A stretch of 61,009 nt of DNA from NCBI GenBank assembly GCA_027080775.1, contig JALWPV010000043.1, forward strand, positions 1 to 61,009. The letters are read 5' to 3'. The notes beneath the pieces were generated by a model. It saw nothing but the letters and a program-made list of their open reading frames with translations. It did no database searches and was not told where the DNA came from. Every line of letters starts with the position of its first letter. The stretch's first letter is position 1. The stretch is from Acidilobaceae archaeon (GTDB taxonomy: Archaea > Thermoproteota > Thermoprotei_A > Sulfolobales > Acidilobaceae). Shown one piece after another: positions 1 to 53,691 of this stretch. The position numbers and the translations under genes were made by a program.

Positions 1-14
1 GGGAGGCGGCCTGC

Positions 15-272
15 GTGAGGGTGGTCTTGAAGGTAGGCAGGAAGGGTATAGTGGTCCTGCCTAAGAGGCTGCGGGAGGCGCTGGGCGTCAGGGAGGGCGA
101 TGAGATTGTGGTCGAGGTCCGCGGGGGCGAGGCCGTCCTAAGACCCCTAAAGCCCGTGGTGGTCGACGTGGACCCGAGCCTCGTCGAGAGGATCCTCCGA
201 GAGGAGTACGAGCTCGAGAAGCGCAGGTACTCGGGGATGGTCTCCCGTGAGGAGGCTGGTGGTAGACACTAG
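15..272 (+). CDS. vapB: AbrB/MazE-family antitoxin (VapB-type)
   Basis: An 85-residue protein with an N-terminal SpoVT/AbrB swapped-hairpin fold: KVGRKGIVVLPKRLREALG followed by VREGDEIVVEV. This is the DNA-binding half of AbrB-type VapB antitoxins. The charged C-terminal tail (about residues 50-85) is the part that normally wraps and inhibits the PIN toxin. The start is GTG. The 3' end overlaps the downstream PIN-domain gene by 26 bases, the usual translational coupling of vapBC operons. It probably represses its own operon together with the toxin. The family call is firm; the cognate pairing is inferred from the overlap. Confidence 0.9.
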   Translation: MRVVLKVGRKGIVVLPKRLREALGVREGDEIVVEVRGGEAVLRPLKPVVVDVDPSLVERILREEYELEKRRYSGMVSREEAGGRH

Positions 273-8138: not shown

Positions 8139-8163
8139 CCCCTGACCGCGCCTACACGCTGGG

Positions 8164-9540
8164 GTGCCCATGGCATTGCCTCGGAGGCTGTTCTTCCTCG
8201 GCCTGGACTCGCTGCCGCCCCGGGTCCTTTACGAGGGCCTCGACGGTGGGGCCTTCCAGTACCTCAGGGGGCTCGTGGGGGAGGGGGCCAGGTGGGTGAT
8301 GAGGACCTGCCACCCCCCCATCACCGTGCCGGCCTGGATGGTTATGTTCACGGGTAAGACGCCAGGGGAGTTGGGGGTCTACGGGTTCAGGCACCGCCGC
8401 CCCGGGGAGTTCGGCTACTACATTGTGAATAGCGGGTACATCAAGGCCCCTACCATATGGGACGAGGCCTCGGGGAGGGGCCTCCGGGTCGGGGTCTACG
8501 GTGTGCCCCCCACCTATCCTCCCAGGCCGCTCCACGGGTTCATGGTCACGGACTTCACCACCCCAGGGCCGGAGAAGCCCTACACCTTCCCCCCGTGGCT
8601 CAGGAGGGAGCTGGAGGCCTCGACGGGGCCCACTATCTTCGACATAGTCTACCGGAGCGAGGACAAGGATCGGGTGGCTAGGGACCTGCTTAGGATGCTC
8701 GACAACCACCTGAGGCAGGTGGAGTACCTGGCTACGAGGAAGAAGTGGGACGCATTCTTCTACGTGGAGATAAGCGTTGACAGGGCGCACCACGCCTTCT
8801 GGAGGTACTTTGACCCCAAGCACCCACGCTACGAGGAGCACCCCCGCTATAGCCGTGTGATACCCGAGGTCTACAGGAGGATAGACGAGTGGCTCGAGCG
8901 CCTCCACCCCCGGCTCCCCAAGGACACGATACTGGTGGTGGCGAGCGACCACGGCATAAAGGCGATGAAGGGCGCCTTCACGGTGAACCAGTGGCTCGCG
9001 GAGCAGGGCTACCTCAAGCTCAGGGTTGACCCCTCGAGCCTCAAGCCCGGCACGGACCTCGGGGAGGACATGGTTGACTGGCAGGGCACCATAGCCTGGG
9101 CGTGGGGCGGCTACTATAGCAGGGTATTCGTGAACCTCAAGGGCCGCGAGAAGCACGGCGTCGTGGAGCCGCGCTACTACGAGGAAACCCTGGAGCAGCT
9201 CAGGCGAGACCTAGAGTCCATAAGGGGGCCCCGGGGGGAGGAGTGGGCCAACAAGGCCTACAGGCCCAGCGAGCTATACCCGGAGGTCAACGGCGACCCA
9301 CCAGACCTCATGCTCTACCTGGACGACCTCAACTGGAGGCCCGCCGGGACCCTCGGCTGGCCCACGAACTACCTGGAGGAGAACGATAGGGGCCCCGACG
9401 ACGCGGTCCACGACTGGCACGGGGTCTACGCGGTCTACGACCCCGAGGGCACCCTCGAGCGCGGCGATAGGGGCGTAATGCCCATAGAGTCCATCAAGGC
9501 ACACCTAGAACAGCTTATATTCAGCAAAGAGGAGGGCTAG
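8164..9540 (+). CDS. Type I phosphodiesterase/nucleotide pyrophosphatase family protein
   Basis: A 458-residue AlkP-superfamily enzyme. Motifs in order: FFLGLDSLPP (metal Asp), CHPPITVPAWMVMFTGK with Thr as probable nucleophile, ISVDRAHHAFWRYFD, VVASDHGIKAM (metal Asp and His), and HDWHGVYAVYDPEG near the C-terminus. This is the archaeal nucleotide pyrophosphatase/phosphodiesterase type. Candidate substrates are nucleotide sugars, APS/PAPS or phospholipid-type esters; the neighbourhood favours sulfonucleotides or glycan precursors, but this is inference. Either GTG 8164 or ATG 8170 could start it. The gene is 21 bases before the second RHH gene. Confidence 0.85.
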   Translation: MPMALPRRLFFLGLDSLPPRVLYEGLDGGAFQYLRGLVGEGARWVMRTCHPPITVPAWMVMFTGKTPGELGVYGFRHRRPGEFGYYIVNSGYIKAPTIWDEASGRGLRVGVYGVPPTYPPRPLHGFMVTDFTTPGPEKPYTFPPWLRRELEASTGPTIFDIVYRSEDKDRVARDLLRMLDNHLRQVEYLATRKKWDAFFYVEISVDRAHHAFWRYFDPKHPRYEEHPRYSRVIPEVYRRIDEWLERLHPRLPKDTILVVASDHGIKAMKGAFTVNQWLAEQGYLKLRVDPSSLKPGTDLGEDMVDWQGTIAWAWGGYYSRVFVNLKGREKHGVVEPRYYEETLEQLRRDLESIRGPRGEEWANKAYRPSELYPEVNGDPPDLMLYLDDLNWRPAGTLGWPTNYLEENDRGPDDAVHDWHGVYAVYDPEGTLERGDRGVMPIESIKAHLEQLIFSKEEG

Positions 9541-9560
9541 CCTGGGGGTGCACGTAGGCC

Positions 9561-9770
9561 TTGGCAGGTGACAAGGTCGAGGTCAGGATAAGCCGGGACC
9601 TCTACGAGAAGGCCCGCGAGTTCATAGAGGAGACGGGGGGCTTCAAGAGCGTCGACGAGCTAGTCGAGTTCCTCCTCCAGGAAGTCCTCTCCGGCGAGGA
9701 GGAGGCAGGCCTCACCCAGGAGGACGAGGAGAAGGTCAAGGAGAGGCTCAGGAGCCTAGGCTACCTCTAA
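9561..9770 (+). CDS. Small ribbon-helix-helix protein with LGYL tail (2)
   Basis: A 69-residue protein. VEVRISRDLYEKAREFIEE and FKSVDELVEFLLQEV form an RHH-type strand and two helices. The acidic helix ends in KERLRSLGYL, nearly identical in layout to the RHH protein beside sat. It starts at TTG 9561, 21 bases after the phosphodiesterase gene. The C-terminal R-L-x-x-L-G-Y-L is a known ending of many AlkP-superfamily proteins, so the tail may have been captured from, or may mimic, the neighbouring enzyme family. It is predicted to dimerise and bind DNA. The target is unknown. Confidence 0.75.
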   Translation: MAGDKVEVRISRDLYEKAREFIEETGGFKSVDELVEFLLQEVLSGEEEAGLTQEDEEKVKERLRSLGYL

Positions 9771-9830
9771 CCCCTCTGGACCACTAGGCCTGGGGAGGTT
9801 GTCAATGCCCTTTCTTAAGTTCCGGGGCCC

Positions 9831-10301
9831 GTGCTAGTCTCGGGGCCGTCCGGCTTGAACGGTGTGGATAAGCGGCAGTACGAGGCTTTCCTACGCGAGG
9901 CGCGTGAGGCGCTCGGGGTCGCGGAGCGCATAGTTGGTGGTATGAGCCTCGAGGATTTCATGCGGAGCCCCGAGGCGCGCTTCGCGTTGCGTTACGCCCT
10001 CATACTCTTCGTCGAGTCCGTGGTAGACGCTATAGTCCTCGTCCTAGAGTCCGTTTATGGTGTAGCCCCGGAGTCATATAGGGAGGCGGTGCTACTAGCG
10101 GGGGAGAAGGGCATACTCTCCTACTCTACCGCCAGCGAGCTTGCAAGGCTGGCTTCGCTGCGCAACATGCTGGTGCATCGATACTGGAGGGTCGACGATG
10201 AGAGAGTCTACCGGGAAACGAGTAAAGGCCTCGGGGTCGCCCGGAGGGCCCTGGAGGAGCTTGAGAGGCTTGGCGAGGCTCTCGAGGGTCGAGGAGGCTA
10301 A
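9831..10301 (+). CDS. HEPN-domain toxin, HepT-like (DUF86)
   Basis: A 156-residue all-helical HEPN protein. The RNase motif R-x4-H-x-Y is present as RNMLVHRY (about residues 110-117), in the typical sentence SLRNMLVHRYWRVDD of HepT proteins. HepT is an RNase toxin neutralised by AMPylation or polyadenylation of the Tyr in this motif by its MntA partner. The gene runs into the downstream nucleotidyltransferase gene by about 30 bases, as in hepT-mntA operons. The start could be internal to the leader near 9831. Confidence 0.85.
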   Translation: MLVSGPSGLNGVDKRQYEAFLREAREALGVAERIVGGMSLEDFMRSPEARFALRYALILFVESVVDAIVLVLESVYGVAPESYREAVLLAGEKGILSYSTASELARLASLRNMLVHRYWRVDDERVYRETSKGLGVARRALEELERLGEALEGRGG

Positions 10302-10734
10302 GAGGAGGAGCACCCATCTCTCCCGGGAGCAGAGGAGGGAGGCGCTGGAGGCCATCAGGGACGCACTCAAGCCTAGGGGCGAGGTCCTCTTGGCGCTCGC
10401 CTTCGGGGGGATCCTTGTGGAGGGGAAGCCCATAAGGGACATAGACGTTGCCGTCTACACGGGCTACCATGTATCCCCCGAGGAGTGGCCCTACTACGCT
10501 GGCGAGCTGAGGGACCTGCTCGAGGCAGCGGTACGCTCCAGGCTGGGCCTCCGGAAGGCCGTCGACGTGGTGGTGCTAGAGTACGCCCCGCCCGGCCTCA
10601 GGGCGGCTATACTAGCGGGGGGCCGCCTGCTGGTGAACCGCAGGCCCGGCCTTAGGGCTCTCCTGCTCCTCCACTCGCGGGACGAGGAGAGGAGCATCCA
10701 AGCCAAGGCAGCCCGGGCCCGCCGGGGATCCTAG
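10270..10734 (+). CDS. MNT-type nucleotidyltransferase antitoxin (MntA-like, variant active site)
   Basis: About 154 residues from TTG 10270 (TTG 10261 is an alternative), overlapping hepT. It has a Pol-beta-type nucleotidyltransferase core: LALAFGGILVEGKPIRDIDV followed by AVDVVVLEYAPP with the third acidic residue. The canonical motif is G-S-x10-D-x-D. Here the Ser is Gly and the spacing is nine residues, so the catalytic loop differs from standard MntA. This may be a divergent antitoxin that still modifies HepT, or one that inhibits by binding. It ends with four bases overlapping the convergent glycosyltransferase gene. Confidence 0.8.
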   Translation: MARLSRVEEAKRRSTHLSREQRREALEAIRDALKPRGEVLLALAFGGILVEGKPIRDIDVAVYTGYHVSPEEWPYYAGELRDLLEAAVRSRLGLRKAVDVVVLEYAPPGLRAAILAGGRLLVNRRPGLRALLLLHSRDEERSIQAKAARARRGS

Positions 10735-11804
10735 GCCTTGTAGGCCTCGTAGTTCCTGTAGGCCCTCTCTACTACCTCCCTGTACCTGAGGTACGCTGGC
10801 AGCATTAGCAGCAGGCTCCCGGCCCCATAGAGGTTGAACTTGACATAGTTGTAGAGGGCCCTCCGCAGACTGTAGCCCTCGCGGGGCAGCCTCGAGGCGG
10901 CCCCAGCGAGGGGTATAGCGAGTCCCAGGACGGCTAGTAGGGGCTTCACGGCCCCTAGGCCTATGAGGGCCGCCGCCAGGAGGTCCGAGGCTAGGTGGTA
11001 TGTGCTCCTCTGCCTCCTCCGGAGGGCCCTGAGTATCGTGCTGGGGATCGAGCCGTCGTATAGGCTCCAGACCTCGTGGACCAGGGACTTGTAGGCCAGG
11101 CTCGAGAGGTACTCCCCTATGGGGGCCCTCCTGTAGACGTCCGAGTAGGGGCCCAAGTTGAGGTCTACGGCCGGGTGCCAGCCACCTGGGGGCCAGGCCT
11201 CGAGGACTGGTATGCCATGGTACCACGCTTTGAGGCCCAGCTCGGCGTCCTCACAGCACACCATGTCCTCACTCAGCCGCAGCACGCCGAGGCTACCCGG
11301 GGGTATGAGGGTCGCCCCCAGTGGTGGCCACTTGAGCTTGGAGACCCGGGGCTCGCCTATTCGGGCCCTGCGGGCCCTCTCCAGGAGGGAGCGGGCGTCC
11401 CCCTCCAGCTCGGCCCTCGACTGGTAGTAGCGGAACTCGTAGGGGGCGTGGACTATCGCCTTGCCCCGGCTTGCCTGGGCGAGCGTGCAGACTAGGTCCC
11501 CCGCCAGTAGCATGACGTCGGAGTCGAGGAAGAAGACGTGGTCGAAGCCCCCCGCCTCTAAGGCTATCTCCATGCCCCTGTTCCTGGCCTGGGGGATGTT
11601 ACCCTCGTAGACCTCGACTACATGCTCTACCCCCCGCTCCTCGAGGATCCCCCTCACGAGGCCGAGGGTCCCGTCGCAGCTCCCCCCATCAACCACTATG
11701 AAGAAGTGCTCCACACCCTCCTGGGCTAGAGCCGACTCAAGGCTATACCCTACCGTCGCCTCGGAGTTCATGGTGAGCACGATGAACGCTACCCGGCACC
11801 CCAT
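10731..11804 (-). CDS. Membrane-anchored family 2 glycosyltransferase
   Basis: A 357-residue GT-A glycosyltransferase. The GT2 start is VAFIVLTMNSEATVGYSLES, with VVDGGSCDGT for nucleotide binding, the metal-binding D-x-D as FFLDSDVMLL, and an ARNRGMEIA helix. An acceptor-side E-D is seen in VCCEDAELGLKAW. The last 90 residues contain about three hydrophobic helices that probably tether the enzyme to the membrane, as in dolichyl-linked glycan assembly. A TATA-like block (GTTATATC on the coding strand, about 11838-11845) lies some 35 bases upstream of the ATG, fitting a short leader. Confidence 0.88.
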   Translation of the reverse strand: MGCRVAFIVLTMNSEATVGYSLESALAQEGVEHFFIVVDGGSCDGTLGLVRGILEERGVEHVVEVYEGNIPQARNRGMEIALEAGGFDHVFFLDSDVMLLAGDLVCTLAQASRGKAIVHAPYEFRYYQSRAELEGDARSLLERARRARIGEPRVSKLKWPPLGATLIPPGSLGVLRLSEDMVCCEDAELGLKAWYHGIPVLEAWPPGGWHPAVDLNLGPYSDVYRRAPIGEYLSSLAYKSLVHEVWSLYDGSIPSTILRALRRRQRSTYHLASDLLAAALIGLGAVKPLLAVLGLAIPLAGAASRLPREGYSLRRALYNYVKFNLYGAGSLLLMLPAYLRYREVVERAYRNYEAYKA

Positions 11805-11875
11805 AGGGTCCCCAGGCCCACTCCAGCTGGGGGCCAGCCGATATAACAGGCCTCTCGAGACCCGCCGGAGGCCGC

Positions 11876-13036
11876 CTAGCCCGCCCGTAGGAGCCCGCGG
11901 CGCGCAAGGTACTCGGCGTACCCGTCTACTATGCGTACTATCCTCTCCTTGAACCTCTCCTTCGAGAAGGCCAGGGACCTCCTATAGGCTAGCCTGTGGA
12001 GGCGCTCGTAGTTCCTTATCGCGTAGCGTATCTTCTCCACGGCCTCCTCCACGCTGCTATAACCCAGGCCGTACCTCCCCCTCTCCACTATGTCGAACCA
12101 GGGCCCCCCGGACTTGTAGACCACCGGCACTAGCCCGGCGTTCATCCCCTCCACGACCGCTATGCCGAAGTGCTCGTTAGGCATAGCATGAAGGTAGACC
12201 TTGGCTTTGAGGAGCAGCTCCTCCAGCCTCCGCTGTGGAATGTTGGGGTGGAGGTGGACGTTCCTCAGGCCCCTCTCCTCCACCATACCCCTTATCCTGT
12301 TGTAGTACTCGACTGAGGCCCTGGTAGGCGTGGAGCCCGCTATGTGGAACTCGTACTCAGGCAGCCTACTCGCTATCTCAACCACCACCTCGTGCCTCTT
12401 CTCCAGCGTGAACCTGCCTATGGAGACGACCATGTCCTCCCTCCTCGAGGCCTCGACCTCCCCGGGGGTGAACCTCAGGTCCACTGGGGGGTAGACCACG
12501 AGCGCCCTCCGCCCCAGGGTTCTCAGTATGAACGCGGCGGAGAACCTCGAGTTAGTCAGCAGGAGAGTCTTGGATCTCCTCCTCATCCTACTCTTCTGTA
12601 TGGAGTAATAGGGGGCGAAGTAGAGCCTCCAAAAGCCCCTAGCATACTTGCTATAGGAGTCCTCCCACACAGCTATTATCGGAAAATGCATGTAAGTTAT
12701 ATCAGCGTCGAAGACCAACATATCGCCGTGAGTATTGATTATTATATCATATCTACCCCTTAGCCTCGGAATCAGCGCTGAGGAGGCAAGCCGCATGTAT
12801 ATAGCCAATGCATTAACTTGGAAGGGAAGTAATCTAACCTCCTCATCAGGCCTGACCACGTCTCCCCAGGCCCGCCTCACCTTCTCCCAATCAGTAGGCT
12901 CGACCGTAGCGAGGGTCACGTGGTAGCCCCTCTCCTTGAGCGCCTCAATTACTGCCACGCAGACCCTCTCAGCGCCGCCAGTCGGCGAGAGGGAGTTGTG
13001 GACCACGGCAACCCTCACGGGCCTCCCGCTCGTCAA
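11876..13036 (-). CDS. GT-B glycosyltransferase, family 4 (ALG2/ALG11-like)
   Basis: A 386-residue GT-B enzyme. The N-terminal domain opens with VAVVHNSLSPTGGAERV, the typical glycine loop of GT4 mannosyltransferases. The C-terminal domain contains VVSIGRFTLEKRHEVVV and the donor-binding E-x7-E region NEHFGIAVVEGMNAGLVPVV. The NEHFGI-VEGM signature is that of ALG2/ALG11-type enzymes, which extend dolichol-linked oligosaccharides using GDP-mannose. It is predicted to be a cytoplasmic face enzyme of N-glycan or surface glycan synthesis. It starts at ATG 13036 and precedes the GT2 gene on the same strand with a 71-base gap. Confidence 0.9.
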   Translation of the reverse strand: MTSGRPVRVAVVHNSLSPTGGAERVCVAVIEALKERGYHVTLATVEPTDWEKVRRAWGDVVRPDEEVRLLPFQVNALAIYMRLASSALIPRLRGRYDIIINTHGDMLVFDADITYMHFPIIAVWEDSYSKYARGFWRLYFAPYYSIQKSRMRRRSKTLLLTNSRFSAAFILRTLGRRALVVYPPVDLRFTPGEVEASRREDMVVSIGRFTLEKRHEVVVEIASRLPEYEFHIAGSTPTRASVEYYNRIRGMVEERGLRNVHLHPNIPQRRLEELLLKAKVYLHAMPNEHFGIAVVEGMNAGLVPVVYKSGGPWFDIVERGRYGLGYSSVEEAVEKIRYAIRNYERLHRLAYRRSLAFSKERFKERIVRIVDGYAEYLARRGLLRAG

Positions 13037-16209: not shown

Positions 16210-16829
16210 TCGTAACCCGAGGCAAACCCCCAGGAGCAACCCTCGCAGCAGCGCTCATCCTAGGCGACGGGCCAACCGACGAGGCGCTGGTAGAGGCCGT
16301 AGCAAGCCACTACAACCACAGCAAGGCACTAGCCATACCCGAGGCCCCCACCAGGGAGACAGGCCTCACCAAAGCCCTCGAGAGGGCCTGGTACATAATA
16401 GCCAAGCTAGGCATCACCAGGATCCTACTAGTAATAGACAGAGAGCACCTACCCCAGAACAAGAGCAGGCTAGAACGGGAGATGCGCCGCGCAGGCCTAC
16501 ACGCCACAAGCATCGAAGCCCCACACCCAAGACTACTAATAGCCAGAGCCGAGACAAACCCACCCCACACCAGGAGGGCCACCATACTAATAGCAGCAAT
16601 GGGGGAAGACCCACCCAGCGTCGAGGCGGACATAGCCAAGCTAATAGAGGAGACACACGGCGACAAGGTAGAACCAACCAAGAAGAACATACGAAAACGG
16701 CTAAAAAGCCACGGACTAACACTAAAACAACTAGCAGAAAAAGCCACCAGACAACAACTAGAACAAGCACTACCACACCTAACAAGAGCACTCAAAACAC
16801 TAGCAACACAAGACCCCCAAACAACATGA
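16206..16829 (+). CDS. Toprim-like partner of the truncated ATPase (weak call)
   Basis: A 207-residue protein coupled by ATGA to the RecF/OLD-like fragment. ALILGDGPTDEALVEAVAS and TRILLVIDREHLPQN could be the acidic strand-turn elements of a Toprim-like nuclease domain (compare E-G-x-x-D and D-x-D in OLD nucleases), but the first acidic residue is not standard. The last 80 residues are Lys/Gln/Thr-rich helices. OLD systems pair an ATPase with a Toprim nuclease, which is why I suggest it. The coding strand from about 16550 is nearly devoid of T and poor in G, marking the edge of the AT-rich island. The function is uncertain. Confidence 0.5.
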   Translation: MIVTRGKPPGATLAAALILGDGPTDEALVEAVASHYNHSKALAIPEAPTRETGLTKALERAWYIIAKLGITRILLVIDREHLPQNKSRLEREMRRAGLHATSIEAPHPRLLIARAETNPPHTRRATILIAAMGEDPPSVEADIAKLIEETHGDKVEPTKKNIRKRLKSHGLTLKQLAEKATRQQLEQALPHLTRALKTLATQDPQTT

Positions 16830-17659
16830 CACACAACACCCAACACAAACCACTAGTATCAATAATCATACCAACATACAACTCAGCAAAAACACTACCA
16901 CTAACCCTAGAATCAATAAAAAGGCAGACATACAAGAACATAGAGGTTATTATCGTGGACAGCTATAGTCAAGATAAAACAATTAAAATAGCTAGGAGAT
17001 ATAATGCAAGAATAGTACTAACGCACGGCAGGCTTCTCTGGGCAAGATACCTAGGCCACTTACACGCCAAAGGAGAGGTAGAACTCCTCCTAGACTCCGA
17101 CCAAATACTCAACCCTACAGCCATTGAACGCGGTGTTAAGATGATGCTTAAGGAATACGACATGTTGATATTAGAGGAGAAAAGCTATAAGCCTAGAACG
17201 CTGATACAGTGGCTTTTTTACTTTGATCGGAGGCATATACATGCGATAAAAGACTTACACCCGGTACACGGTGTTTTACTAGCAAGAATGTATCGTCATA
17301 AACTGTTGCATAAGGCCTTCAATCGTATAAGGTATAAGCTGCCTTTGAGGGTAATGTATCGGCTTGTGTCGCAAGATCATGCCATAATATATTATGAGGC
17401 ATGGCAGCATGCGAATAGAGCAGGTATTCTAGAAGATGCTGTCTATCATATTGAGCCGGCTACGTTAGCTGAGGTGGTAAGGAAATTCTATCGATATGGG
17501 AAAACAGAACTTAGCATATCAAAATTCTATCCGGAACTATCAAAAGGTAAGAGGACTCCTAGGAAAATAAGCATAAAACCGTATTCTCTAATATCGCTAG
17601 CACTATGGCTTGCAAAGGCTATACCATATGCCCTAGGAAAGCTTAATACCAATCTGTAA
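16826..17659 (+). CDS. Family 2 glycosyltransferase (AT-rich island)
   Basis: A 277-residue GT2. LVSIIIPTYNSAKTLPLTLE, EVIIVDSYSQDKT, and the D-x-D-like ELLLDSDQILNPT are the GT-A landmarks. A hydrophobic C-terminal stretch (SLISLALWLAKAIPYALG) may bind the membrane. ATG 16826 overlaps the preceding stop (ATGA), so it is translationally coupled to the Toprim-like gene although they are not obviously related. The composition passes from A/C-rich to plainly AT-rich along this gene. It is likely part of a strain-variable glycan locus. Confidence 0.87.
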   Translation: MTHNTQHKPLVSIIIPTYNSAKTLPLTLESIKRQTYKNIEVIIVDSYSQDKTIKIARRYNARIVLTHGRLLWARYLGHLHAKGEVELLLDSDQILNPTAIERGVKMMLKEYDMLILEEKSYKPRTLIQWLFYFDRRHIHAIKDLHPVHGVLLARMYRHKLLHKAFNRIRYKLPLRVMYRLVSQDHAIIYYEAWQHANRAGILEDAVYHIEPATLAEVVRKFYRYGKTELSISKFYPELSKGKRTPRKISIKPYSLISLALWLAKAIPYALGKLNTNL

Positions 17660-17693
17660 AAGCTTGCATGAAAATGAGTTAATACATTTAATT

Positions 17694-18668
17694 ATGTTAA
17701 ATAAAAAGATTAAAAATAATATAAATAAAGAATATCCTTTAGTCTCGATCGTAATACCAACACATAATAGAAAAAAGAAAGTAGCGCGACTAATAAAATC
17801 CATACTTAAATCTGAGTACCCCGAAGATAAGCTTGAGATTATTGTAGTTGATGATGCATCGACCGATAGTACATATGATTATATAAAGAAGTTATTTCCA
17901 CAAGTCAAAGTTATCCGCAATGGAGAGGAGAAACTGCTTGCTGAATCGCGAAATATAGGCGTTAGAGCTTCACATGGAAAATACGTGTTCTTGATTGATG
18001 ATGACAATGTTGTAGATAGAAATACGATAAAAGAACTCATAGACTACATGGAGAAGCAACCTAAAGTAGGTGTTGCAGCACCTCTCATGTACTTCCTGAG
18101 CGATCCAAAAAGGCTATGGTGTGCAGGCGTAAAACGTAACTACTGGACAACAATAACCAAATACATAGGTTTCAATAGTATAGATGCAGGCCAGTTCAAC
18201 GAACCCTACGAATCGGATGATTTTCCAAACGCTTTCATAGTCAGGAGAGAAGTCCTCGAAAAAATTGGCTTATTTAACTCAAAACTGTTTCCTATACACT
18301 ACGATGAAGGAGATTTCTGCCAGCGCGTAAAAAGAGCTGGATATAAGGTAATGGTAGTGCCAACAGCGAAGGTGTGGCATGACATACCTTTACCAGAGGA
18401 ACGCAAAACATTCACTTTACGTTTAAAGAGCCCGCTTAGAGCCTACTACACATCTAGAAACAGGATACTCTTCCACTGGAAGTGGAGTAGAAATATGCTA
18501 CAGAGGATAGTAGCGTTAATGGCTTCGCTAGCAGTAATACTGTACTACATTATAGTCGTAGTAAGAGACGATAGCATTGAGGATAAGGGTAAGATTATTT
18601 CAAATATTCTAAGAGGAATAATTGACGCGTTCAAGATCATAGGTAAAGGGGAGGTTAAGGATTTTTGA
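17694..18668 (+). CDS. Family 2 glycosyltransferase, rhamnosyltransferase-like (AT-rich island)
   Basis: About 324 residues from ATG 17694 (TTG 17664 possible). PLVSIVIPTHNRKKK, EIIVVDDASTDST, the D-x-D as FLIDDDNVVD, and YDEGDFCQRVKRAGYKV are the standard GT2 motifs; the last contains the catalytic-base E-D type segment. C-terminal residues about 265-300 form a hydrophobic helix pair (ALMASLAVILYYIIVVV). The call as a surface-glycan transferase rests on neighbours. The stop overlaps the TTG start of the AlkP-like gene. Confidence 0.88.
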   Translation: MLNKKIKNNINKEYPLVSIVIPTHNRKKKVARLIKSILKSEYPEDKLEIIVVDDASTDSTYDYIKKLFPQVKVIRNGEEKLLAESRNIGVRASHGKYVFLIDDDNVVDRNTIKELIDYMEKQPKVGVAAPLMYFLSDPKRLWCAGVKRNYWTTITKYIGFNSIDAGQFNEPYESDDFPNAFIVRREVLEKIGLFNSKLFPIHYDEGDFCQRVKRAGYKVMVVPTAKVWHDIPLPEERKTFTLRLKSPLRAYYTSRNRILFHWKWSRNMLQRIVALMASLAVILYYIIVVVRDDSIEDKGKIISNILRGIIDAFKIIGKGEVKDF

Positions 18669-19612
18669 ACATTTATAATAAATTAATGGACTTCTTAACA
18701 TCAATAATATTCCCAAGTGCTGACGGAATAAATATTTTAGAACTTGAATGGGACTACCTCATAGTGCTCGATGCGTGTAGATGTGACATCTTCGAGAAAG
18801 TTTATAAATACTTCTTTCCTGAGAATACTAGCTTTAAGTGCATATCATCGACAGCATCGTCAACGATGGAATTCATGCGGAAAAATATTTTGGAGTCTCC
18901 ACAAGTTCTTAGAAAGCTTAAAAACGTTGTCTTCGTTAATGCAAACCCTGTAATAGACCATGTGCTAGGTGATCGCATTTATAGGATATTTTACAGATAC
19001 ATCCCGCTATGGAGGAAGTACTGGAATGAGGATCTAGGCACAGTAGAGCCTAAATACACATACAAGGTGACACTGAAAACCTTCCTTAAGTATCCGGGTA
19101 AGAGAATGATGGTGTGGTTTCTGCAGCCACATTACCCGTATATAGACGAGAGATTTCGCCACATAAACGCTTTGGGCAGGGAATTCATGAATGAAGCGAT
19201 ACGGAGTAGCCGAAACAAAAACCTGGCAGTATTGATGAGAATAGTTACAACCCTAGCACGAAGGGGATATTTATGTGCTGGTATACCAGACAAGGTGTGT
19301 GAATATACGAGTCAAGCACGACTAGACGTCGTGAGGGCATATATTTATAATCTAATTATAACTTTAAAATACGTTAAGAAACTCGTAAAAATGCTATCAG
19401 GGACAATAATAATAACATCTGACCACGGAGAGGCTTTTGGTGAGAGATTAAATAGACTTGCGCCCTTACAGGTATACGGGCACATCTCTAGGATAAGAAT
19501 AAAATCCTTAGTTCAAGTGCCATGGCTTCAAGTTACAAATAATATATCACAAAATGAAACTATAAAAAATATAATTAAAGAAGTTACAATACTATTAACA
19601 AATTTAAAATAA
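18665..19612 (+). CDS. Sulfatase/AlkP-superfamily protein (AT-rich island)
   Basis: A 315-residue AlkP-fold protein, shorter than the two near sat. DYLIVLDACRCDIFEKVY carries the first metal Asp; SSTASSTMEFM is the nucleophile region; IIITSDHGEAFGERLN and YGHISRIRI carry the second metal site. Proteins of this length and pattern occur beside glycosyltransferases in archaeal and bacterial polysaccharide clusters, where they may add or remove phospho or sulfo groups on glycans. TTG 18665 overlaps the previous stop. The catalytic class cannot be fixed from motifs alone. Confidence 0.75.
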   Translation: MNIYNKLMDFLTSIIFPSADGINILELEWDYLIVLDACRCDIFEKVYKYFFPENTSFKCISSTASSTMEFMRKNILESPQVLRKLKNVVFVNANPVIDHVLGDRIYRIFYRYIPLWRKYWNEDLGTVEPKYTYKVTLKTFLKYPGKRMMVWFLQPHYPYIDERFRHINALGREFMNEAIRSSRNKNLAVLMRIVTTLARRGYLCAGIPDKVCEYTSQARLDVVRAYIYNLIITLKYVKKLVKMLSGTIIITSDHGEAFGERLNRLAPLQVYGHISRIRIKSLVQVPWLQVTNNISQNETIKNIIKEVTILLTNLK

Positions 19613-19650
19613 AAAATAAATATTTATTAAAAATATTATATTACTTAAAA

Positions 19651-22356
19651 ATGAAAAAGAAAGTTTTAATTAGATATTCACACACATTAATAATACTTTT
19701 ATTGTTAGCACTAGTAATGCCAATTTTTCTTCATTGGAAGATCTTTGAAAGTGATGCGTGGCCAAAACAGCTCCTTATAACTAAAAATCTCTATGTATTT
19801 TATAAGTTATCATTATATTTAAATATTAATATAATTAGATTTAATGAAATATTATATTATATTATTGAAATAATATCACTTTTTATAATAATTTATTCAT
19901 TTAAAAGAATTATATATAATAAAAAAAGTAATATATTAGGTACATTACTATGTTTATTAGCAATTATTTATTTTGAATTTTATCCATATAATAAGCTTAG
20001 CGATGCTATTTTTAGAGGCATATATGTTTTAATGACAATTGCTGCCTCACTATCAGTATACATGTTAACCTCAGTTGTTACATCTAATAATTTAAAAGAT
20101 ATTTTAAAAACTTCGTTTTTATATTCAATTTTTCTTTTTCTTACATCTATAATTATCGGCCAAAGGGATCCCAGAATACTTGTCTATCCACTGACATTAA
20201 CTTTTTTGATATTAATAATAAGTTTTATTTTAGTAATTTTTACTAGAAAATTTTTATTTACATTTATTAAAGTGCTCTTGTTCTTTGTTCCTCCCCTAGT
20301 CTTACTTTATCTTATGGGATCTATAAGAGTAAAAATTTCAGAGTCGTTGGCACCGATTGTTCCCTTAGACTTGGATGCTTTTAGAGGTAGATATGATGCT
20401 TTTCATTTAATCTCGGGTACCTCATGGGTTCTAGCTCATGTTCCTTCTAAATTATTGATTGCTGTAACATTTTTTGTATTTTCTATGTTAATTCTTTTTT
20501 CGATTTTATTCTTTAAAGAAATTGAAAATAAAAAAGTTTTAAATAGATCTCTAGGATACGACAAAGAAATTGTAATAAATGGCTATGTAATAATATTAAC
20601 TTATATTATAATATTATTATTTGAATTAAATATAAAATCTATTATAAGATTTTTATTAAATTTTGATTATACTATGCTTTTGCTTAATAAGGTACCTTTT
20701 ATAAGAGATTTTCTCATAATGCTGAGGATTCCTAGGTTTATGGATTTTTCTAATAAAGTAATTGTAACTTTTCTTATGATTCAACTTGGAGAAATCCTTG
20801 GAAGAAGCCGTTTAAAGAACATAAAGAAATATTTAAAAATTATGATCGTATTAATTATAATATTTTCATTTATTTTAGCTATATGTAACATCTTAATGTT
20901 AAAGCCATTAATGAAAGAGGGAGCTGTATTAAACTATAACCCAAAATCAATAGTTTTGCTAGGCGCTCCCAGTAAGCCTTTAGCAAGGGACTTTCCAATA
21001 GCCGGATGGGATAAAGAGAAGCTACTGCTTGAAGCGTTTTTGCTTGGAAGGATAAAAGTTGGGTCATTGATTCTTTATGACGACGGCATTATTCCTATAA
21101 AATTTAGACCTTATGCAAATATTTTTAAAAATGCTGGCTTCTCAGTTAGTGAGTTAAACTTAACTCGATATTTTGCTATTGTAAAGTTAAATAAAACTAT
21201 GATAGTAGGAAGGCCTGTATTAATTCCTCAAGGCTTATACCTTGGAAGTGAAGCATGGAAAAAGGGTTATATACCTGTTTATCTAGATCAAATTGTGCCT
21301 TTGAATATTGTAAAGAAAATACTTAATTTAAAAATACCTATAATGATTTACAAAAATAAAGAAGAAACAGCTAAAATTTTAGCTATGTGGTTGATACTGA
21401 ATAATAGGACATTAGATGCTAACTCAGCAATTAAGATTATAGTGCCTTCGTTTTACGCTAAGACCTTTACTCCAAGCCTGACACAGTGGAGCCCCGGGTT
21501 TATAGGAGATCCTCATCACGGAATTTTCTATGAACCCGCAAAAATATACGAATATGACTATACCTATAAGTTAAACTGGGGGGTTATTCAGGGTAGAGCT
21601 GTAAAAGAGCCTTTAAGAATACCATTTAAGCTCGGGACTTCAGGAAAATATGTTATAATGGTAAGGCTCATGAGTACTGGAAACGGGTCGCTTAGACTTT
21701 ATTTAGATGGGAGAAATTGCGCGTATTTAAAGATAAATAAGACTGAAAACATAAATTCTAGAATAGGATTCATATGGGTTGATGTTTGCAATATTAATAT
21801 TAAAAAAGGTATTCATTTATTGAAGATCTACTGGCTTCCTGCAAAAGAAGAAAGTGCTGCCTCTACTATTTACCTTAATTTAATATTGCTTGTTCGTGAA
21901 AAATTGTGGAGAGATGTATTAAATTATTCATTAAATTATATAAATAATAATAATATAAATTTATCAAGTTTATCTAATATAACAAAGAGACCCCTAATTA
22001 ATGTTAGAGAGTCTAAGACTCTTTATCCTTTCTTAGGAAGAGAATTTAATATAAATATTTCAATTAGTAATATAAGAGAAGGGGTACCCTGGATAATAGT
22101 AACACGGCTCCCATGGGGGTATCCTCTTAAGATTAATAATAATAAAAATATACTGGAGGCCTTCTCTACTCCTGTAGATTATGTGAAAACCGGTATAATT
22201 ATAATTTCTAAAAATAATAGGTTAACTTTTCAAATAAAAGAATACCAAGAATACACGACACCAATGGGTTTCATTAAAATAATCACTATATACTTGGCAA
22301 CAATAATATTGCTTTACGGTTTAATTTGTTTTGCAAAGAAAAATTTGAAAAAATAA
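19651..22356 (+). CDS. Large membrane protein with extracellular beta-rich domain, possible GT-C enzyme
   Basis: 901 residues. The first 430 or so residues hold about 11 membrane helices. A first outer loop with FESDAWPKQ resembles the acidic loop of GT-C glycosyltransferases, which use dolichyl-phosphate sugars. Residues about 430-870 are hydrophilic and extracytoplasmic; GKYVIMVRLMSTGNGSLRLY and IHLLKIYWLP look like strands of a carbohydrate-binding jelly roll. A last helix (IKIITIYLATIILLYGLI) and a KKNLKK tail anchor the C-terminus inside. I do not recognise the family. It may be a polymerase or transferase acting on the lipid-linked glycan. GC content here is very low. Confidence 0.6.
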   Translation: MKKKVLIRYSHTLIILLLLALVMPIFLHWKIFESDAWPKQLLITKNLYVFYKLSLYLNINIIRFNEILYYIIEIISLFIIIYSFKRIIYNKKSNILGTLLCLLAIIYFEFYPYNKLSDAIFRGIYVLMTIAASLSVYMLTSVVTSNNLKDILKTSFLYSIFLFLTSIIIGQRDPRILVYPLTLTFLILIISFILVIFTRKFLFTFIKVLLFFVPPLVLLYLMGSIRVKISESLAPIVPLDLDAFRGRYDAFHLISGTSWVLAHVPSKLLIAVTFFVFSMLILFSILFFKEIENKKVLNRSLGYDKEIVINGYVIILTYIIILLFELNIKSIIRFLLNFDYTMLLLNKVPFIRDFLIMLRIPRFMDFSNKVIVTFLMIQLGEILGRSRLKNIKKYLKIMIVLIIIFSFILAICNILMLKPLMKEGAVLNYNPKSIVLLGAPSKPLARDFPIAGWDKEKLLLEAFLLGRIKVGSLILYDDGIIPIKFRPYANIFKNAGFSVSELNLTRYFAIVKLNKTMIVGRPVLIPQGLYLGSEAWKKGYIPVYLDQIVPLNIVKKILNLKIPIMIYKNKEETAKILAMWLILNNRTLDANSAIKIIVPSFYAKTFTPSLTQWSPGFIGDPHHGIFYEPAKIYEYDYTYKLNWGVIQGRAVKEPLRIPFKLGTSGKYVIMVRLMSTGNGSLRLYLDGRNCAYLKINKTENINSRIGFIWVDVCNINIKKGIHLLKIYWLPAKEESAASTIYLNLILLVREKLWRDVLNYSLNYINNNNINLSSLSNITKRPLINVRESKTLYPFLGREFNINISISNIREGVPWIIVTRLPWGYPLKINNNKNILEAFSTPVDYVKTGIIIISKNNRLTFQIKEYQEYTTPMGFIKIITIYLATIILLYGLICFAKKNLKK

Positions 22357-22402
22357 TTTAGATCTCGATGTTGAGTCAAAAGTTAGGAGGTAGATATTTT
22401 AT

Positions 22403-23693
22403 ATGGTCAAGCTTAGGGTTTTAGTAGTAAATTATAAATTTTCAAATCTAAGAGGAGGGGTTCATAGGATTCAAAATTTAAGTAAGGGATTGAAAGATCT
22501 TGGATTGAAACAAGAATATGTTTCTGTATACGGAATTTCGGAAGATTTAGAAAAAATAAAATATGAAAATAGAAATATTTTAATAAGAAAATATTTTAAT
22601 ATAATTACAAAATATAAGATTTTAGGAATAATAAATAATACGTTTTTATTTTAATATAATTACAAAATATAAGATTTTAGGAATAATAAATAATACGTTT
22701 TTAAATGTAGTTATGTTAATAATAAATATAATAAAATATTATTTAAAAGAAAATAAATCAAAACCCGTTAAGATTGTAATGGTAAGCGTTCCATTACTAT
22801 TTAAGCTTATACCATTTTTATTACTAAGAAAGCAAAGAGTGCTCATTGTTGATTTTGGTGATATATGGTCTAGATATACATATATATTTCATAAATTATT
22901 AAGAAAGAATACTAATATAATTGATCTATTAGCTAATTTCTATACCACTATAGAAGAAGTAATTGGTTTAAATATTTTAGCTCAATTACATAAAATGCAC
23001 AATGTAGTTTTAATAACTGTCCCCACGAGGGTTATGGAAGTGTTTTTGAGAAGGTATGGTTTCAATAATGTGTATTTCCTTTACCATCCCGTCGATATAT
23101 GTTTAGATTCCGGCAAGCATGCTAAGATTGCTTTTGAAAAGAGTTTAAATATTATAATTTTTTCTTCGTCAAATTTAACGAGTACTGAGGAGTTAGAGGT
23201 GCTTTTAAAAATTTCAAATTTTATAAAAAGAAAGAATTTACAATATAAGATTTTTATAATAAATAATAATTATAAGAAAGAAAAAGAAAGGTTGAGCAAA
23301 TATGTGGATAATAGTAGTTTAATTGTGCTTCCAGTCTTGAGAAGAAAATATTATTTAAAACTTTTACAGAAAATGCATTTAGCTATTGTTCTGGAACCAG
23401 AGAATGTGGCATGGATTTCCTTAATACCTAGACATATATCCAAAGTAGCCGAATTTTCCTGTCTAGGCATACCCACTATAACAAATAGTCGAGTTTTGAG
23501 GGACTATGTCATAAATGGGTACAACGGTTACATAGTACCTCTAAATAATATACCATTGGTAGTTCAAAAAATTATAGAAAAACCCGAATTATTTTATAGA
23601 TTAAAGGCCAACTCGTTGAAGTTTTGTAATGAGAAGCTATTTTATCGCAGAGTAGCGTTCAAACTTCTGAACCTTATACTACAAAATCTATAA
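22403..23693 (+). pseudogene. GT4 glycosyltransferase split by a 55-bp tandem duplication
   Basis: Two frames belong to one GT-B gene. The first (22403-22654, 83 residues) gives LRVLVVNYKFSNLRGGVHRI, the GT4 opening. The second (to 23693) gives FGDIWSRYTY and, near its end, HISKVAEFSCLGIPTITNS and NGYNGYIVPLNN, the donor-binding domain. Between them 22593-22647 is repeated exactly at 22648-22702. The unit is 55 bp (3n+1), so it shifts the frame and brings an immediate stop. Removing one copy leaves 1236 bp, an open frame of 411 residues, normal for GT4. As it stands it is broken. Because the duplication is perfect it must be recent and could revert. Confidence 0.9.
22593..22702. repeat. Perfect 55-bp direct tandem duplication
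   Basis: Copy 1 is 22593-22647 and copy 2 is 22648-22702; they are identical over all 55 positions. Each unit begins ATTTTAATATAA and ends ATACGTTTTT. The repeat lies inside a glycosyltransferase gene and changes its reading frame by +1. It is not bounded by other repeats and has no insertion-sequence features. Confidence 0.97.
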
Positions 23694-26313: not shown

Positions 26314-27357
26314 ATGGGGGGGCGTCCTGGGAGGCTTCTAGTCGTTGGGGGCGCCGGTTTTATTGGGTCTAACTTTGTTAGGCACGAGCTCGTGGAGGCT
26401 GGGGCTGGTGATGTAGAGGTTCTGGTTTACGATAAGTTGACTTATGCGGGTAGGCTGGAGAACCTCCACGATGTGAGGGGCCTAGGGGGCTTCAGGTTCG
26501 TGAGGGGCGACGTGTGTGATGAGGGCCTCCTGGAGAGGGTTGTGGGGGAGTTCGAGCCCGATGCAGTAGTTAATTTCGCGGCTGAGACCCACGTTGATAG
26601 GAGCATAAACGAGCCGGCCCCCTTTATCCGGACGAATGTACTGGGCGTCTTCACCCTCCTCGAGGTCCTGAGACGCCTTGGGGGGGACACGGTTTACCTC
26701 CACGTGTCGACCGACGAGGTCTACGGGGACCTCTGGGGCGTGGAGGGCGAGGCCGACGAGTCCTGGCCCTTGAACCCCTCGAGCCCCTACTCGGCCTCCA
26801 AGGCTTCTGCTGACCTGCTGGTTAGGGCCTATGGTAGGACCTATGGGATCAGGTACAGGATAGCGCGTCCCTGCAACAACTACGGCCCCTACCAGCACCC
26901 CGAGAAGCTTATCCCTAGGACTATAGTCAGGCTTCTCCTGGGCAGGCCCGCCACGATATACGGGGATGGAGGGCAGGTTAGGGACTGGCTGTACGTCGGG
27001 GATACGGTGCGCGCCTTCGACGCTATCCTCAGGAGGGGCGGGGACTTCGAGGTCTACAACATATGCGCTCACCAGTATGCTACCGTGAAGAGCGTAGTGG
27101 AGGCGATCGTGAGGCTCATGGGCCGCGACCCAAGCCGCGATATAGTGTACGTTGAGGGGAGGCCCGGGGAGGACAGGCGGTACGCCATGAAGTGCGACAA
27201 GATAGCCGGGCTCGGCTGGAGGCCCCGAGTAAGCCTCGAGGAGGGGCTTAGAGCCACGGTGGAGTGGTACACGGGCAACCGCTGGTGGTGGGAGCCCCTA
27301 GTCGACGAGAGGTACGTGCTCGCCGAGAAGCCCTGGAGACCGGGGGGAGGGCCTTGA
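26314..27357 (+). CDS. rmlB: dTDP-glucose 4,6-dehydratase
   Basis: A 347-residue SDR, the second enzyme of dTDP-L-rhamnose synthesis. LVVGGAGFIGSNFVRHEL binds NAD; HVSTDEVYGDLWG contains the D-E pair that protonates and abstracts during dehydration; YSASKASADLLVRAY carries Y-x3-K; RPCNNYGPYQHPEKLIP is the RmlB signature. The length is typical. Its TGA overlaps the TTG start of rmlD by two bases, so the pair is translationally coupled. It starts at ATG 26314. Confidence 0.96.
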   Translation: MGGRPGRLLVVGGAGFIGSNFVRHELVEAGAGDVEVLVYDKLTYAGRLENLHDVRGLGGFRFVRGDVCDEGLLERVVGEFEPDAVVNFAAETHVDRSINEPAPFIRTNVLGVFTLLEVLRRLGGDTVYLHVSTDEVYGDLWGVEGEADESWPLNPSSPYSASKASADLLVRAYGRTYGIRYRIARPCNNYGPYQHPEKLIPRTIVRLLLGRPATIYGDGGQVRDWLYVGDTVRAFDAILRRGGDFEVYNICAHQYATVKSVVEAIVRLMGRDPSRDIVYVEGRPGEDRRYAMKCDKIAGLGWRPRVSLEEGLRATVEWYTGNRWWWEPLVDERYVLAEKPWRPGGGP

Positions 27358-28268
27358 GGGTGCTCGTGACGGGCGGCACGGGCCTCCTAGGCTGGTGGCT
27401 CGTCAAGGCCTTCCTCGAGACTGGCTTCGAGGTACACGCGACCTATCATACCAGAAAGCCCTTGGGGCCCAATGGGGCATCGTGGCGCAGGCTCGAGCTA
27501 GCGGATCCGGCGGACGTGGCGCGGGTCTTCGAGGAGGCCAGGCCCGACGTTGTGGTCCACGCGGCTGCCTACACCGATGTGGATGGCTGCGAGAGGAGCC
27601 CCGGGCTGGCCTATAGGGTGAACTACCTGGGCACGCTTGCCGTGGCCCGCGAGGCCGCCCGCCGCGGGGCCTTCATGGTATACGTGTCGACGGACTACGT
27701 ATTCGACGGCGAGAGGGGCCTCTACAGGGAGGAGGACACCCCGAGGCCCATCAACTACTACGGGCTCACTAAGCTACTCGGGGAGGCGTCCACGGCGGCG
27801 CTCCCCGGGGACTCAAGCCTCATTGTAAGGGTCAGCGGCCTCTACGGCTACAGCCCCACGGGTAAGAGGAACTTCGGCGTCAACGCCCTCGAGGCCCTCC
27901 TAGAGGGGAGGAGCGTGAAGGCGTTCGATGACCAGTACCTCTCCCCTACCTATGCCCCCTGGCTGGCGGGCGCCATAGCAAAGCTTGTCTCAAGCGGAGC
28001 CTCCGGTGTGCTGCACGTGGCCGGGGAGAGGATGTCGAGGTACGAGTTCGCCCTGAGGCTAGCCGAGGCGGTGGGCGCCGACCCCAGCCTCGTGAGGCCG
28101 ACCCCGATGTCGAGCGCGAGGCTGGCCGCCAGGAGGCCCCGTGATTCAAGCCTGGACGTACGCCGCGCTAAGGCGCTAGGCATAACGCACCCACCCGCCG
28201 CGCAGGCCATAAGAGGGTTCGTCGAGGAGTACCTGAGAGCGCGAACAGAGGACCCATCCACGTTATAG
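27354..28268 (+). CDS. rmlD: dTDP-4-dehydrorhamnose reductase
   Basis: About 304 residues from TTG 27354. LRVLVTGGTGLLGWWLVKAF is the Rossmann motif; VVHAAAYTDVDGCERSP is characteristic of RmlD; VYVSTDYVFDGERG and YYGLTKLLGE give the catalytic Thr and Y-x3-K. It reduces dTDP-4-dehydrorhamnose to dTDP-L-rhamnose with NAD(P)H. The TTG overlaps the stop of rmlB. A longer reading frame exists upstream, but it only shadows rmlB. Confidence 0.94.
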   Translation: MRVLVTGGTGLLGWWLVKAFLETGFEVHATYHTRKPLGPNGASWRRLELADPADVARVFEEARPDVVVHAAAYTDVDGCERSPGLAYRVNYLGTLAVAREAARRGAFMVYVSTDYVFDGERGLYREEDTPRPINYYGLTKLLGEASTAALPGDSSLIVRVSGLYGYSPTGKRNFGVNALEALLEGRSVKAFDDQYLSPTYAPWLAGAIAKLVSSGASGVLHVAGERMSRYEFALRLAEAVGADPSLVRPTPMSSARLAARRPRDSSLDVRRAKALGITHPPAAQAIRGFVEEYLRARTEDPSTL

Positions 28269-28309
28269 CGCTGGCTAACGCGGCCCCCAAGAGGTGGCGG
28301 TGGCGCGGG

Positions 28310-29383
28310 ATGCCCAGAGTGTCAGGTGTTATCCCAGCTGCCGGCGAGGGCACTAGGCTCAGGCCCCTCACACTGGCGGCTCCTAAACACCTCATCTCCC
28401 TCCTGGGCAAGCCGATGATAGGGTACCCAATAGAGCACCTCGTGGAGGCGGGCGTGAGTGATATCACGATCGTTGTAGGGTACCTGGGACACCTCATACG
28501 CGGGGCCCTGGGCGATGGCTCCAGCTTCGGCGCCAGGCTCAGCTACGTCACCCAGGAGGAGAGGCTAGGCATAGCCCACGCCATCCACCTAGCCATAGAG
28601 GAGGCCAGCATCGCTGGCCCATTCGTGGTTTACCTCGGCGATAACATCCTCAAGGGAGGCATAATGAGGTACCTCAACCGGTTCCTCGAAGGAGGGTATG
28701 ACGTATACATACTCCTGGCTCGAGTGAGGGATCCCTCGAGGTTCGGCGTCGCTGTATTGAGGGACGGGAGAATAGTAAAGCTCGTTGAGAAGCCGAGGCA
28801 TCCCATATCGGATCTCGCAGTGATAGGTGTCTACTTCTTCCGAGACCCTGATCTAGTGGAGAAGGCGTTCTCAACGCTGAAGCCCTCGGGGAGGGGCGAG
28901 TACGAGATCACGGAGCTCATACAGTGGTTCATAGACCACGGCTACAATATAGGCTACGAGACCGTATCGGGGTGGTGGAAGGACGTTGGCACCCCGCAGG
29001 GGCTGCTGGAGGCGCTTTACCTCCTCCTAGACGAGGTGGAGCCCCGGCTCGAGGGGTCCGTTGAGGGGGAGGTCTACGGGAGAGTCATCGTCGAAGAGGG
29101 CGCGGTTGTGGAGGGCAAGGTCTACGGGCCAGCATATATAGGCCGCGGCTCCCGCGTGGGTCCCAAGGCCAAGGTGGAACACTATGTATCCCTAGAGCCT
29201 GCCTCACACGTGGCAAGCGGCACGGTCACCCGCAGCCTCCTGCTGGAAGAGTCACTAGTCGACATCAACTCGCTGAGGCTAGTGGACAGCGTCATCGGGA
29301 GGAGAGCTAGGATCACGTGCAAGCGCGAGCTCTACGGGACCCTACAAGCCGCCCTCTCCGACTATAGCTCTGTCGAGATCTAA
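28310..29383 (+). CDS. rmlA: Glucose-1-phosphate thymidylyltransferase, long archaeal form
   Basis: A 357-residue nucleotidyltransferase. VIPAAGEGTRLRPLTLAAPK is the nucleotide-binding signature; VVYLGDNILKGG holds the metal Asp; GRGEYEITELIQWFID and WWKDVGTPQGLLEA are RmlA landmarks. The last 110 residues add left-handed beta-helix repeats (EGSVEGEVYGRVIVEEGAVV, then GPAYIGRGSRVGP), as in archaeal bifunctional-looking sugar-1-P nucleotidyltransferases. It makes dTDP-glucose from dTTP and glucose-1-P, the first step of the pathway. ATG 28310, 41 bases after rmlD. Confidence 0.94.
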   Translation: MPRVSGVIPAAGEGTRLRPLTLAAPKHLISLLGKPMIGYPIEHLVEAGVSDITIVVGYLGHLIRGALGDGSSFGARLSYVTQEERLGIAHAIHLAIEEASIAGPFVVYLGDNILKGGIMRYLNRFLEGGYDVYILLARVRDPSRFGVAVLRDGRIVKLVEKPRHPISDLAVIGVYFFRDPDLVEKAFSTLKPSGRGEYEITELIQWFIDHGYNIGYETVSGWWKDVGTPQGLLEALYLLLDEVEPRLEGSVEGEVYGRVIVEEGAVVEGKVYGPAYIGRGSRVGPKAKVEHYVSLEPASHVASGTVTRSLLLEESLVDINSLRLVDSVIGRRARITCKRELYGTLQAALSDYSSVEI

Positions 29384-29405
29384 CTAGCCTCGCCGGGCGG
29401 TGGCC

Positions 29406-29969
29406 ATGCCCTTCAAGGAGTTCAAGAGGCTGGAGATACCGGATGTGATCCTCGTCGAACCCGTAGTCTTCCCGGATGAGAGGGGCTTCTTCGCGGAGCT
29501 CTACAAGAGAACACCCTTCCTCTCCGAGGGGATACCCTACGACTTCGTCCAAGTCAATATCAGCAAGTCCAAGAAGGGCGTGGTCAGAGGGCTCCACTAC
29601 CAGCTGAGGCCCATGGAGCAGGGCAAGCTCATCACCGTACTCAGGGGCAGGATAGTCGACGTGGCAGTCGACATTAGGAGGGGGAGCCCCTGGTACGGCA
29701 TGCATGTAGCAGTCGAGCTCTCAGAGGACAACCCCAGGCTCCTCTGGGTACCACCCGGCTTCGCGCATGGCTTCCAGGCGCTAGAGGATGAAACCCTACT
29801 ACTCTACCTGGTAACCAAGGAGTACAGCCCCGAGCATGAGAGGTGCATAAGATGGGACGACCCGGATCTAGGCATACAATGGCCCCTCCCCAGGAGCGCT
29901 ATATTAAGCGAGAAGGACAAGAAGTGCCCCCCGCTAAGGGAGGCGGAGACGAACTTCCACTACCCCTAA
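29406..29969 (+). CDS. rmlC: dTDP-4-dehydrorhamnose 3,5-epimerase
   Basis: About 187 residues from ATG 29406 (GTG 29400 possible). A cupin-fold epimerase: VFPDERGFFAELYKRTPF, VVRGLHYQLRPMEQGKLI with the catalytic His, VDVAVDIRRGSPWYG, and WVPPGFAHGFQALED carry the signature residues. It is the third enzyme of the dTDP-L-rhamnose pathway. With rmlB, rmlD and rmlA immediately upstream the set is complete and collinear (B-D-A-C), probably one operon. Confidence 0.96.
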   Translation: MPFKEFKRLEIPDVILVEPVVFPDERGFFAELYKRTPFLSEGIPYDFVQVNISKSKKGVVRGLHYQLRPMEQGKLITVLRGRIVDVAVDIRRGSPWYGMHVAVELSEDNPRLLWVPPGFAHGFQALEDETLLLYLVTKEYSPEHERCIRWDDPDLGIQWPLPRSAILSEKDKKCPPLREAETNFHYP

Positions 29970-51735: not shown

Positions 51736-51782
51736 CTTCGGAGCCTGTGGCCCCGGGCTGGAAACCCGGCGGGCCCGCCACA
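51736..51782 (+). repeat. tRNA-Arg(TCG) 3'-half-like element, copy A
   Basis: 47 bases identical to copy B at 52689. From 51731 it folds like a tRNA 3' half: anticodon stem CAGGC, loop CTTCGGA (anticodon TCG), stem GCCTG, variable loop TGGCC, T-stem CCGGG, T-loop CTGGAAA, T-stem CCCGG, then CGGGCCC, discriminator G and CCA. All segment lengths are canonical. The T-loop departs from T-T-C-R-A-N-Y, and no 5' half (which should begin GGGCCCG) is present upstream, so this is not a working tRNA. It lies between the SerK gene and the first vapBC cassette, and has no TATA box next to it. Confidence 0.75.
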
Positions 51783-51862
51783 TCTTTACGTAGAGTAAAA
51801 GATGATGATTTTATGATGACCAAATAGGTTATTGTATTTAATTTAAATTACTTAATTGATTA

Positions 51863-52324: not shown

Positions 52325-52332
52325 TTCATTGG

Positions 52333-52527: not shown

Positions 52528-52653
52528 CCCCTTGCACCCATATCATGTATAGCTTCACGAGCCAATTAGCCTTTTCCTGCAGAGATGTTTCCAGATTATC
52601 CTCCCTGATATTCTGTATGGATAATCGTTTGTGGAGAGCGTTCCCAAATTATG

Positions 52654-52680: not shown

Positions 52681-52688
52681 TCTCGGGT

Positions 52689-53683: not shown

Positions 53684-53691
53684 TCTCGGGT

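What the first reader, a model, noticed from the sequence alone, without database searches (positions are those of the whole stretch)
22593..22702. Perfect 55-bp tandem duplication that switches off a glycosyltransferase
The unit 22593-22647 is exactly repeated; 55 is not a multiple of three, so the GT4 gene is split after codon 83. Deleting one copy gives 1236 bases, an open 411-residue GT4 gene with start and donor domains joined. Identity of the two copies shows a very recent event, and precise loss by slippage or recombination would restore the gene. This looks like a phase-variation switch of surface glycan structure, comparable to bacterial contingency loci, or a fresh mutation in a culture.
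Basis: seen in the sequence. Interest (0 to 1): 0.72.

Follow-up and report, generated by a model that had tools for sequence, protein, structure and literature searches.

The report
Recent duplication breaking a glycosyltransferase gene
In the draft genome of an uncultured heat-loving archaeon, a 55-base piece of a probable sugar-transferring enzyme gene is copied twice in a row, which breaks the gene; this is most likely an ordinary recent mutation that could undo itself, not a demonstrated switch, and an assembly error is not fully excluded.

Summary
Bases 22593-22647 are repeated exactly at 22648-22702 (exact match 57 bp at offset 55; chance maximum 13 bp). The extra 55 bp shifts the frame and splits one gene into an 83-codon 5' ORF with a ribosome-binding site and a 326-codon 3' ORF without one. 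With one copy the gene reads through for 411 residues. Both parts align, in order, with intact GT4-type enzymes of related archaea, but the GT4 assignment is weak (Pfam below cut-off).

The genome is probably a MAG (85 contigs, final k = 127) of Acidilobaceae. The gene ends an AT-rich, probably imported block inside a variable rhamnose/glycan locus. The congener contig holding the downstream part of this locus lacks the block.

55 is a metaSPAdes k value, so I tested for an artefact. Contig ends overlap by 127, not 55. No perfect duplication of period 55, 77, 99 or 127 was found in 4.65 Mb of mostly JGI contigs. No second comparable duplication turned up in 1.06 Mb of this genome. The artefact is less likely but not excluded without reads.

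Best reading: a recent spontaneous tandem duplication, reversible in principle, like pneumococcal cap3A/cap8E/tts. Nothing shows an evolved switch.

The parts
22593..22647 (+). first copy of the 55-bp unit (in the original reading frame)
22648..22702 (+). second, identical copy; the upstream frame meets TAA at 22652-22654 inside it
22403..22654 (+). 5' fragment of the GT4-like gene, 83 aa, preceded by AGGAGGT ribosome-binding-like sequence
22713..23693 (+). 3' fragment, 326 aa, carrying the weakly recognised GT-B donor domain (Glycos_transf_1, E = 0.0027, below cut-off); no ribosome-binding-like sequence
16826..23693 (+). AT-rich (22-40% GC) five-gene block: two GT2, a sulfatase-like protein, a 901-aa protein without family matches, the broken GT4-like gene; sampled genome 62.7% GC
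26314..29969 (+). neighbouring dTDP-rhamnose genes rmlB, rmlD-like, rmlA, rmlC (surface glycan context)
   Evidence: rmlD-like by eye only

Best explanation
A recent, spontaneous 55-bp tandem duplication in one lineage of an uncultured Acidilobaceae-like archaeon, made by replication slippage or end repair at a 2-base microhomology (TA) in very AT-rich DNA. It shifts the reading frame and so inactivates the last gene of an imported surface-glycan block, a GT4-like glycosyltransferase. Because the copies are identical and adjacent, one can be lost precisely again, which would restore the gene; that makes the change reversible by default, as for random duplications in pneumococcal capsule genes. 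The array, the frame break and the two ORFs are shown. That the event is real DNA rather than assembly, its recency and its reversibility are inferred. That it is a selected switch is not claimed.
For: Exact 57-bp offset match, far beyond chance. One-copy frame open for 411 residues with no other lesion. The 5' part aligns to the N-terminus and the 3' part to the C-terminal domain of the same intact relative, in order (L113: residues 4-48 and 239-390 of the joined reading). Relatives pass Pfam GT4/GT1 cut-offs. RBS-like sequence only before the 5' ORF. No other lesion among the five tightly packed genes of the block. The contig-end overlap found is 127 bp, so the final k spans the whole 112-bp array. 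No perfect duplications at 55/77/99/127 in 4.65 Mb of mostly JGI contigs, while a non-triplet 47-bp one does occur. Tandem duplications occur among spontaneous mutations of Sulfolobus acidocaldarius, an archaeon of the same broad group (PMC7785828, PMC3139894).
Against: 55 is exactly one of the metaSPAdes k values used for the MAG set from which the congener probably comes (PMC9793634). No reads or second assembly of the locus could be examined. GT4 identity is weak. No close homologue exists to show that the one-copy form is the ancestral or functional state.
Confidence: 0.64

Rival explanations
1. Assembly artefact: two overlapping pieces of sequence sharing 55 bases, from the k = 55 stage of metaSPAdes, were joined without collapsing the overlap; the real gene has one copy and is intact.
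For: 55 is in the ladders 21,33,55,77,99,127 and 33,55,77,99,127 used for that MAG set. The AT-rich block in a 63% GC genome may be poorly covered. One copy gives a perfect ORF. The event is the only one of its kind in the sampled genome.
Against: The only long contig overlap found is 127 bp, so concatenation would be expected to duplicate 127, not 55. A 127-mer contains the whole array. No ladder-length duplication in 4.65 Mb of mostly JGI contigs. The junction bases must come from some read or path.
Confidence: 0.26
2. An evolved phase-variation (contingency) switch of surface glycan structure working by gain and loss of the 55-bp copy.
For: Probable surface-glycan gene, frame-shifting unit, exact copies that can recombine, and bacterial capsule precedents.
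Against: No second such site in 1.06 Mb of the genome. No hypermutable short repeat seen at the site. Structure not above shuffles. No relatives in the other state. The gene itself is nearly unique.
Confidence: 0.05
3. The split is real and functional: the two ORFs, or a +1 frameshift in the 20-base overlap of the open frames, still give an active enzyme.
For: The open frames overlap at 22635-22654.
Against: No RBS-like sequence before 22713; the shift needed is +1, and the T-run is not a canonical -1 heptamer; the split cuts the N-terminal half of a probable GT-B fold.
Confidence: 0.03
4. First step of ordinary gene decay in an imported block (pseudogene) that happens to be caught early and will not revert.
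For: Foreign base composition, variable locus, congener contig without the block.
Against: All other genes of the block are intact and the gene has no second lesion.
Confidence: 0.02

Closest known systems
Pneumococcal capsule phase variation by spontaneous sequence duplication in cap3A, cap8E and tts (Waite et al. 2001, pmid 11886554; 2003, pmid 12624211; cited in PMC4243769 and PMC4022640)
   Same: Duplication inside a surface-polysaccharide gene that breaks it; described as spontaneous and reversible.
   Different: There reversion was seen in culture; here only one sequence state is known, in an archaeon, from an assembly. The original papers were not held, so duplication lengths were not compared.
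Spontaneous tandem duplications in Sulfolobus acidocaldarius pyrE (PMC7785828, PMC3139894)
   Same: Archaea of the same broad group; duplications inside a coding gene recovered as loss-of-function mutations.
   Different: Those were selected in the laboratory; sizes and reversion were not compared here.
Microhomology-mediated tandem duplications of fission yeast ssp1 (Dan et al. 2021, doi 10.1073/pnas.2019060118; via PMC13207564)
   Same: Local duplication in a coding region, giving a premature stop and said to be reversible.
   Different: Those use microhomology pairs; here only 2 bases are shared, and the organism is an archaeon.

Membership tests
Reversible spontaneous tandem duplication in a surface-glycan gene (pneumococcal type) | exact tandem duplication that breaks the reading frame | tested here: met
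Reversible spontaneous tandem duplication in a surface-glycan gene (pneumococcal type) | target is a surface-polysaccharide biosynthesis gene | tested here: inconclusive
   Weak GT1/GT4 similarity, glycan gene neighbourhood
Reversible spontaneous tandem duplication in a surface-glycan gene (pneumococcal type) | reversion by precise loss of one copy at measurable rate | not testable with these tools
   needs reads or cells
Contingency locus (evolved phase variation) | hypermutable sequence at the site, recurring in the genome | tested here: not met
   No other perfect duplication of 20 bp or more in 1.06 Mb sampled; no unusual folding
Contingency locus (evolved phase variation) | both states seen in strains or reads | not testable with these tools
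   no homologous locus in 60 relatives by DNA; reads not available
GT4 glycosyltransferase | curated profile score above cut-off | tested here: not met
   Glycos_transf_1 17.7 bits against a cut-off of 26.4; joined reading 17.0 bits
GT4 glycosyltransferase | collinear similarity to accepted GT4 enzymes over both domains | tested here: inconclusive
   3' part against L112, L113, L115, L659 at E 5e-9 to 6e-7 in a five-sequence comparison; 5' part only weak (L113, E 0.0025)
GT4 glycosyltransferase | GT-B fold | tested here: inconclusive
   single-sequence model of the 3' part too poor (pLDDT 42)

The most novel reading that the evidence does not exclude
A natural population of a hyperthermophilic archaeon switches a surface glycan by high-frequency gain and loss of a 55-bp tandem duplication in a glycosyltransferase gene, a kind of phase variation for which I found no archaeal report in the few searches made.
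Probability: 0.06. Interest if true: 0.65.

Novelty: new member of a known kind. Interest (0 to 1): 0.27.

Why it matters
If real, it is a natural snapshot of the reversible-duplication mutations known from pneumococcal capsule genes, now in an archaeal glycan locus, and raw reads could show directly whether both states coexist. If it is an artefact, it is a useful warning: an exact duplication whose length equals an assembler k value should be checked in reads before a gene is called broken.

Tried and rejected
Ladder-length artefact test: no 55/77/99/127 duplications in 4.65 Mb, so not supported, though not excluded. DNA hairpin at the breakpoint: no better than shuffles. Homologues by DNA: none in the broken gene or the 901-aa gene among 60 relatives beyond short AT-rich scraps; by protein in genome contigs: none; only distant GT4s in the order and phylum. 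PDB search with the 3' part: nothing. Structure prediction of the 3' part: too poor to search with. A second structure job with relatives was not tried because the tool does not accept those sequences. The congener contig could not be opened in the annotated collections. Two scripts gave output swamped by masked contigs and were rerun without N.

Full report
Observation. The 55-bp unit at 22593-22647 is repeated exactly at 22648-22702. The match at offset 55 is 57 bp long, so the two flanks of the original single copy share only TA. In 40 Markov simulations of the surrounding AT-rich block the longest exact match at any offset was 13 bp, so chance is excluded. The upstream frame runs from ATG 22403 through the first copy and stops at 22652-22654 in the second copy; the downstream ORF starts at 22713. 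Read with one copy the frame is open for 1236 bases.

What gene it is. The 3' part scores 17.7 bits with Pfam Glycos_transf_1, below the cut-off of 26.4, and nothing in NCBIfam or the PDB matches it usefully. Distant relatives in other archaeal genomes are clear GT4/GT1 enzymes by Pfam, and the two fragments align to them in order, strongly enough for the 3' part and weakly for the 5' part. So 'GT4-like glycosyltransferase' is likely but rests on distant similarity. The 3' ORF has no ribosome-binding-like sequence and a single possible start near its beginning, while the 5' ORF has AGGAGGT, as expected for one broken gene rather than two genes.

Setting. The window is contig C43 of an 85-contig genome of 1.78 Mb. 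The nearest named relative at rmlA is an Acidilobaceae MAG (92% protein identity). The gene is the last of five close-packed genes at 16826-23693 with 22-40% GC against 62.7% in the sampled genome. Upstream and downstream lie glycosyltransferases and dTDP-rhamnose genes. The congener contig G002:C38 keeps rmlA, rmlC and one GT2 but not the block; its genome is only about 66% complete, so the block could lie elsewhere. This looks like an imported cassette in a variable surface-glycan locus; import is inferred from composition and patchy presence.

Artefact test. The length 55 equals a metaSPAdes k value. The vent MAG study that matches the naming style of the congener used '-k 21,33,55,77,99,127' or '-k 33,55,77,99,127' and a 1000-bp minimum (PMC9793634); that this genome belongs to the same study is my inference. 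The start of the window overlaps the end of contig C56 by exactly 127 bp, which points to a final k of 127, longer than the whole array. Among 525 stretches (4.65 Mb) of IMG/VR contigs, mostly JGI assemblies, perfect tandem duplications of period 18-400 were nearly all multiples of three; there were single cases of 22 and 47 bp and none at 55, 77, 99 or 127. In 1.06 Mb of this genome no other perfect full-length duplication of period 20 or more was found; one stretch with a CRISPR-like array (L104) was left out of that final scan, and its array copies are far shorter than their spacing. These results make an artefact less likely but cannot exclude it; the upper bound from 4.65 Mb is only about 0.6 per Mb.

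Mechanism. I hold most likely that slippage or end repair duplicated the 55 bp in a recent ancestor or in part of the population. Tandem duplications are recorded among spontaneous mutations in Sulfolobus acidocaldarius. Perfect adjacent copies can be lost precisely, so the change is reversible by default, as reported for pneumococcal capsule genes and yeast ssp1. Nothing found here marks the site as an evolved switch: no recurring hypermutable sequence, no folding signal, no allele in the other state.

Verdict. Real sequence feature as assembled; best read as a recent frame-breaking duplication of a known kind, with an assembly artefact as the main rival. Interest is low to moderate until reads are examined.

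Noticed in passing
window 16826-23693: AT-rich five-gene glycan block inside a GC-rich genome, missing at the corresponding place of a congener contig; its last gene has only distant relatives in about 400 genomes of the phylum.
   Followed up: partly
window 1-127 and the end of G000:C56 (L064): Exact 127-bp overlap between the window's start and the end of contig C56, pointing to the final assembly k and to the two contigs adjoining in the assembly graph.
   Followed up: yes
L104 (G000:C1:20001-32799) about 9422-11900: Array of about 25-bp exact repeats spaced 60-68 bp, CRISPR-like.
   Followed up: no
window 51736-53720: Direct repeats of 29-47 bp at offsets 953, 1003 and 1956, apparently three copies of one element.
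   Followed up: no
L652 (G002:C38) 6778-8406: A membrane protein that resembles an archaeosortase/exosortase by eye, next to the glycan genes of the congener.
   Followed up: no
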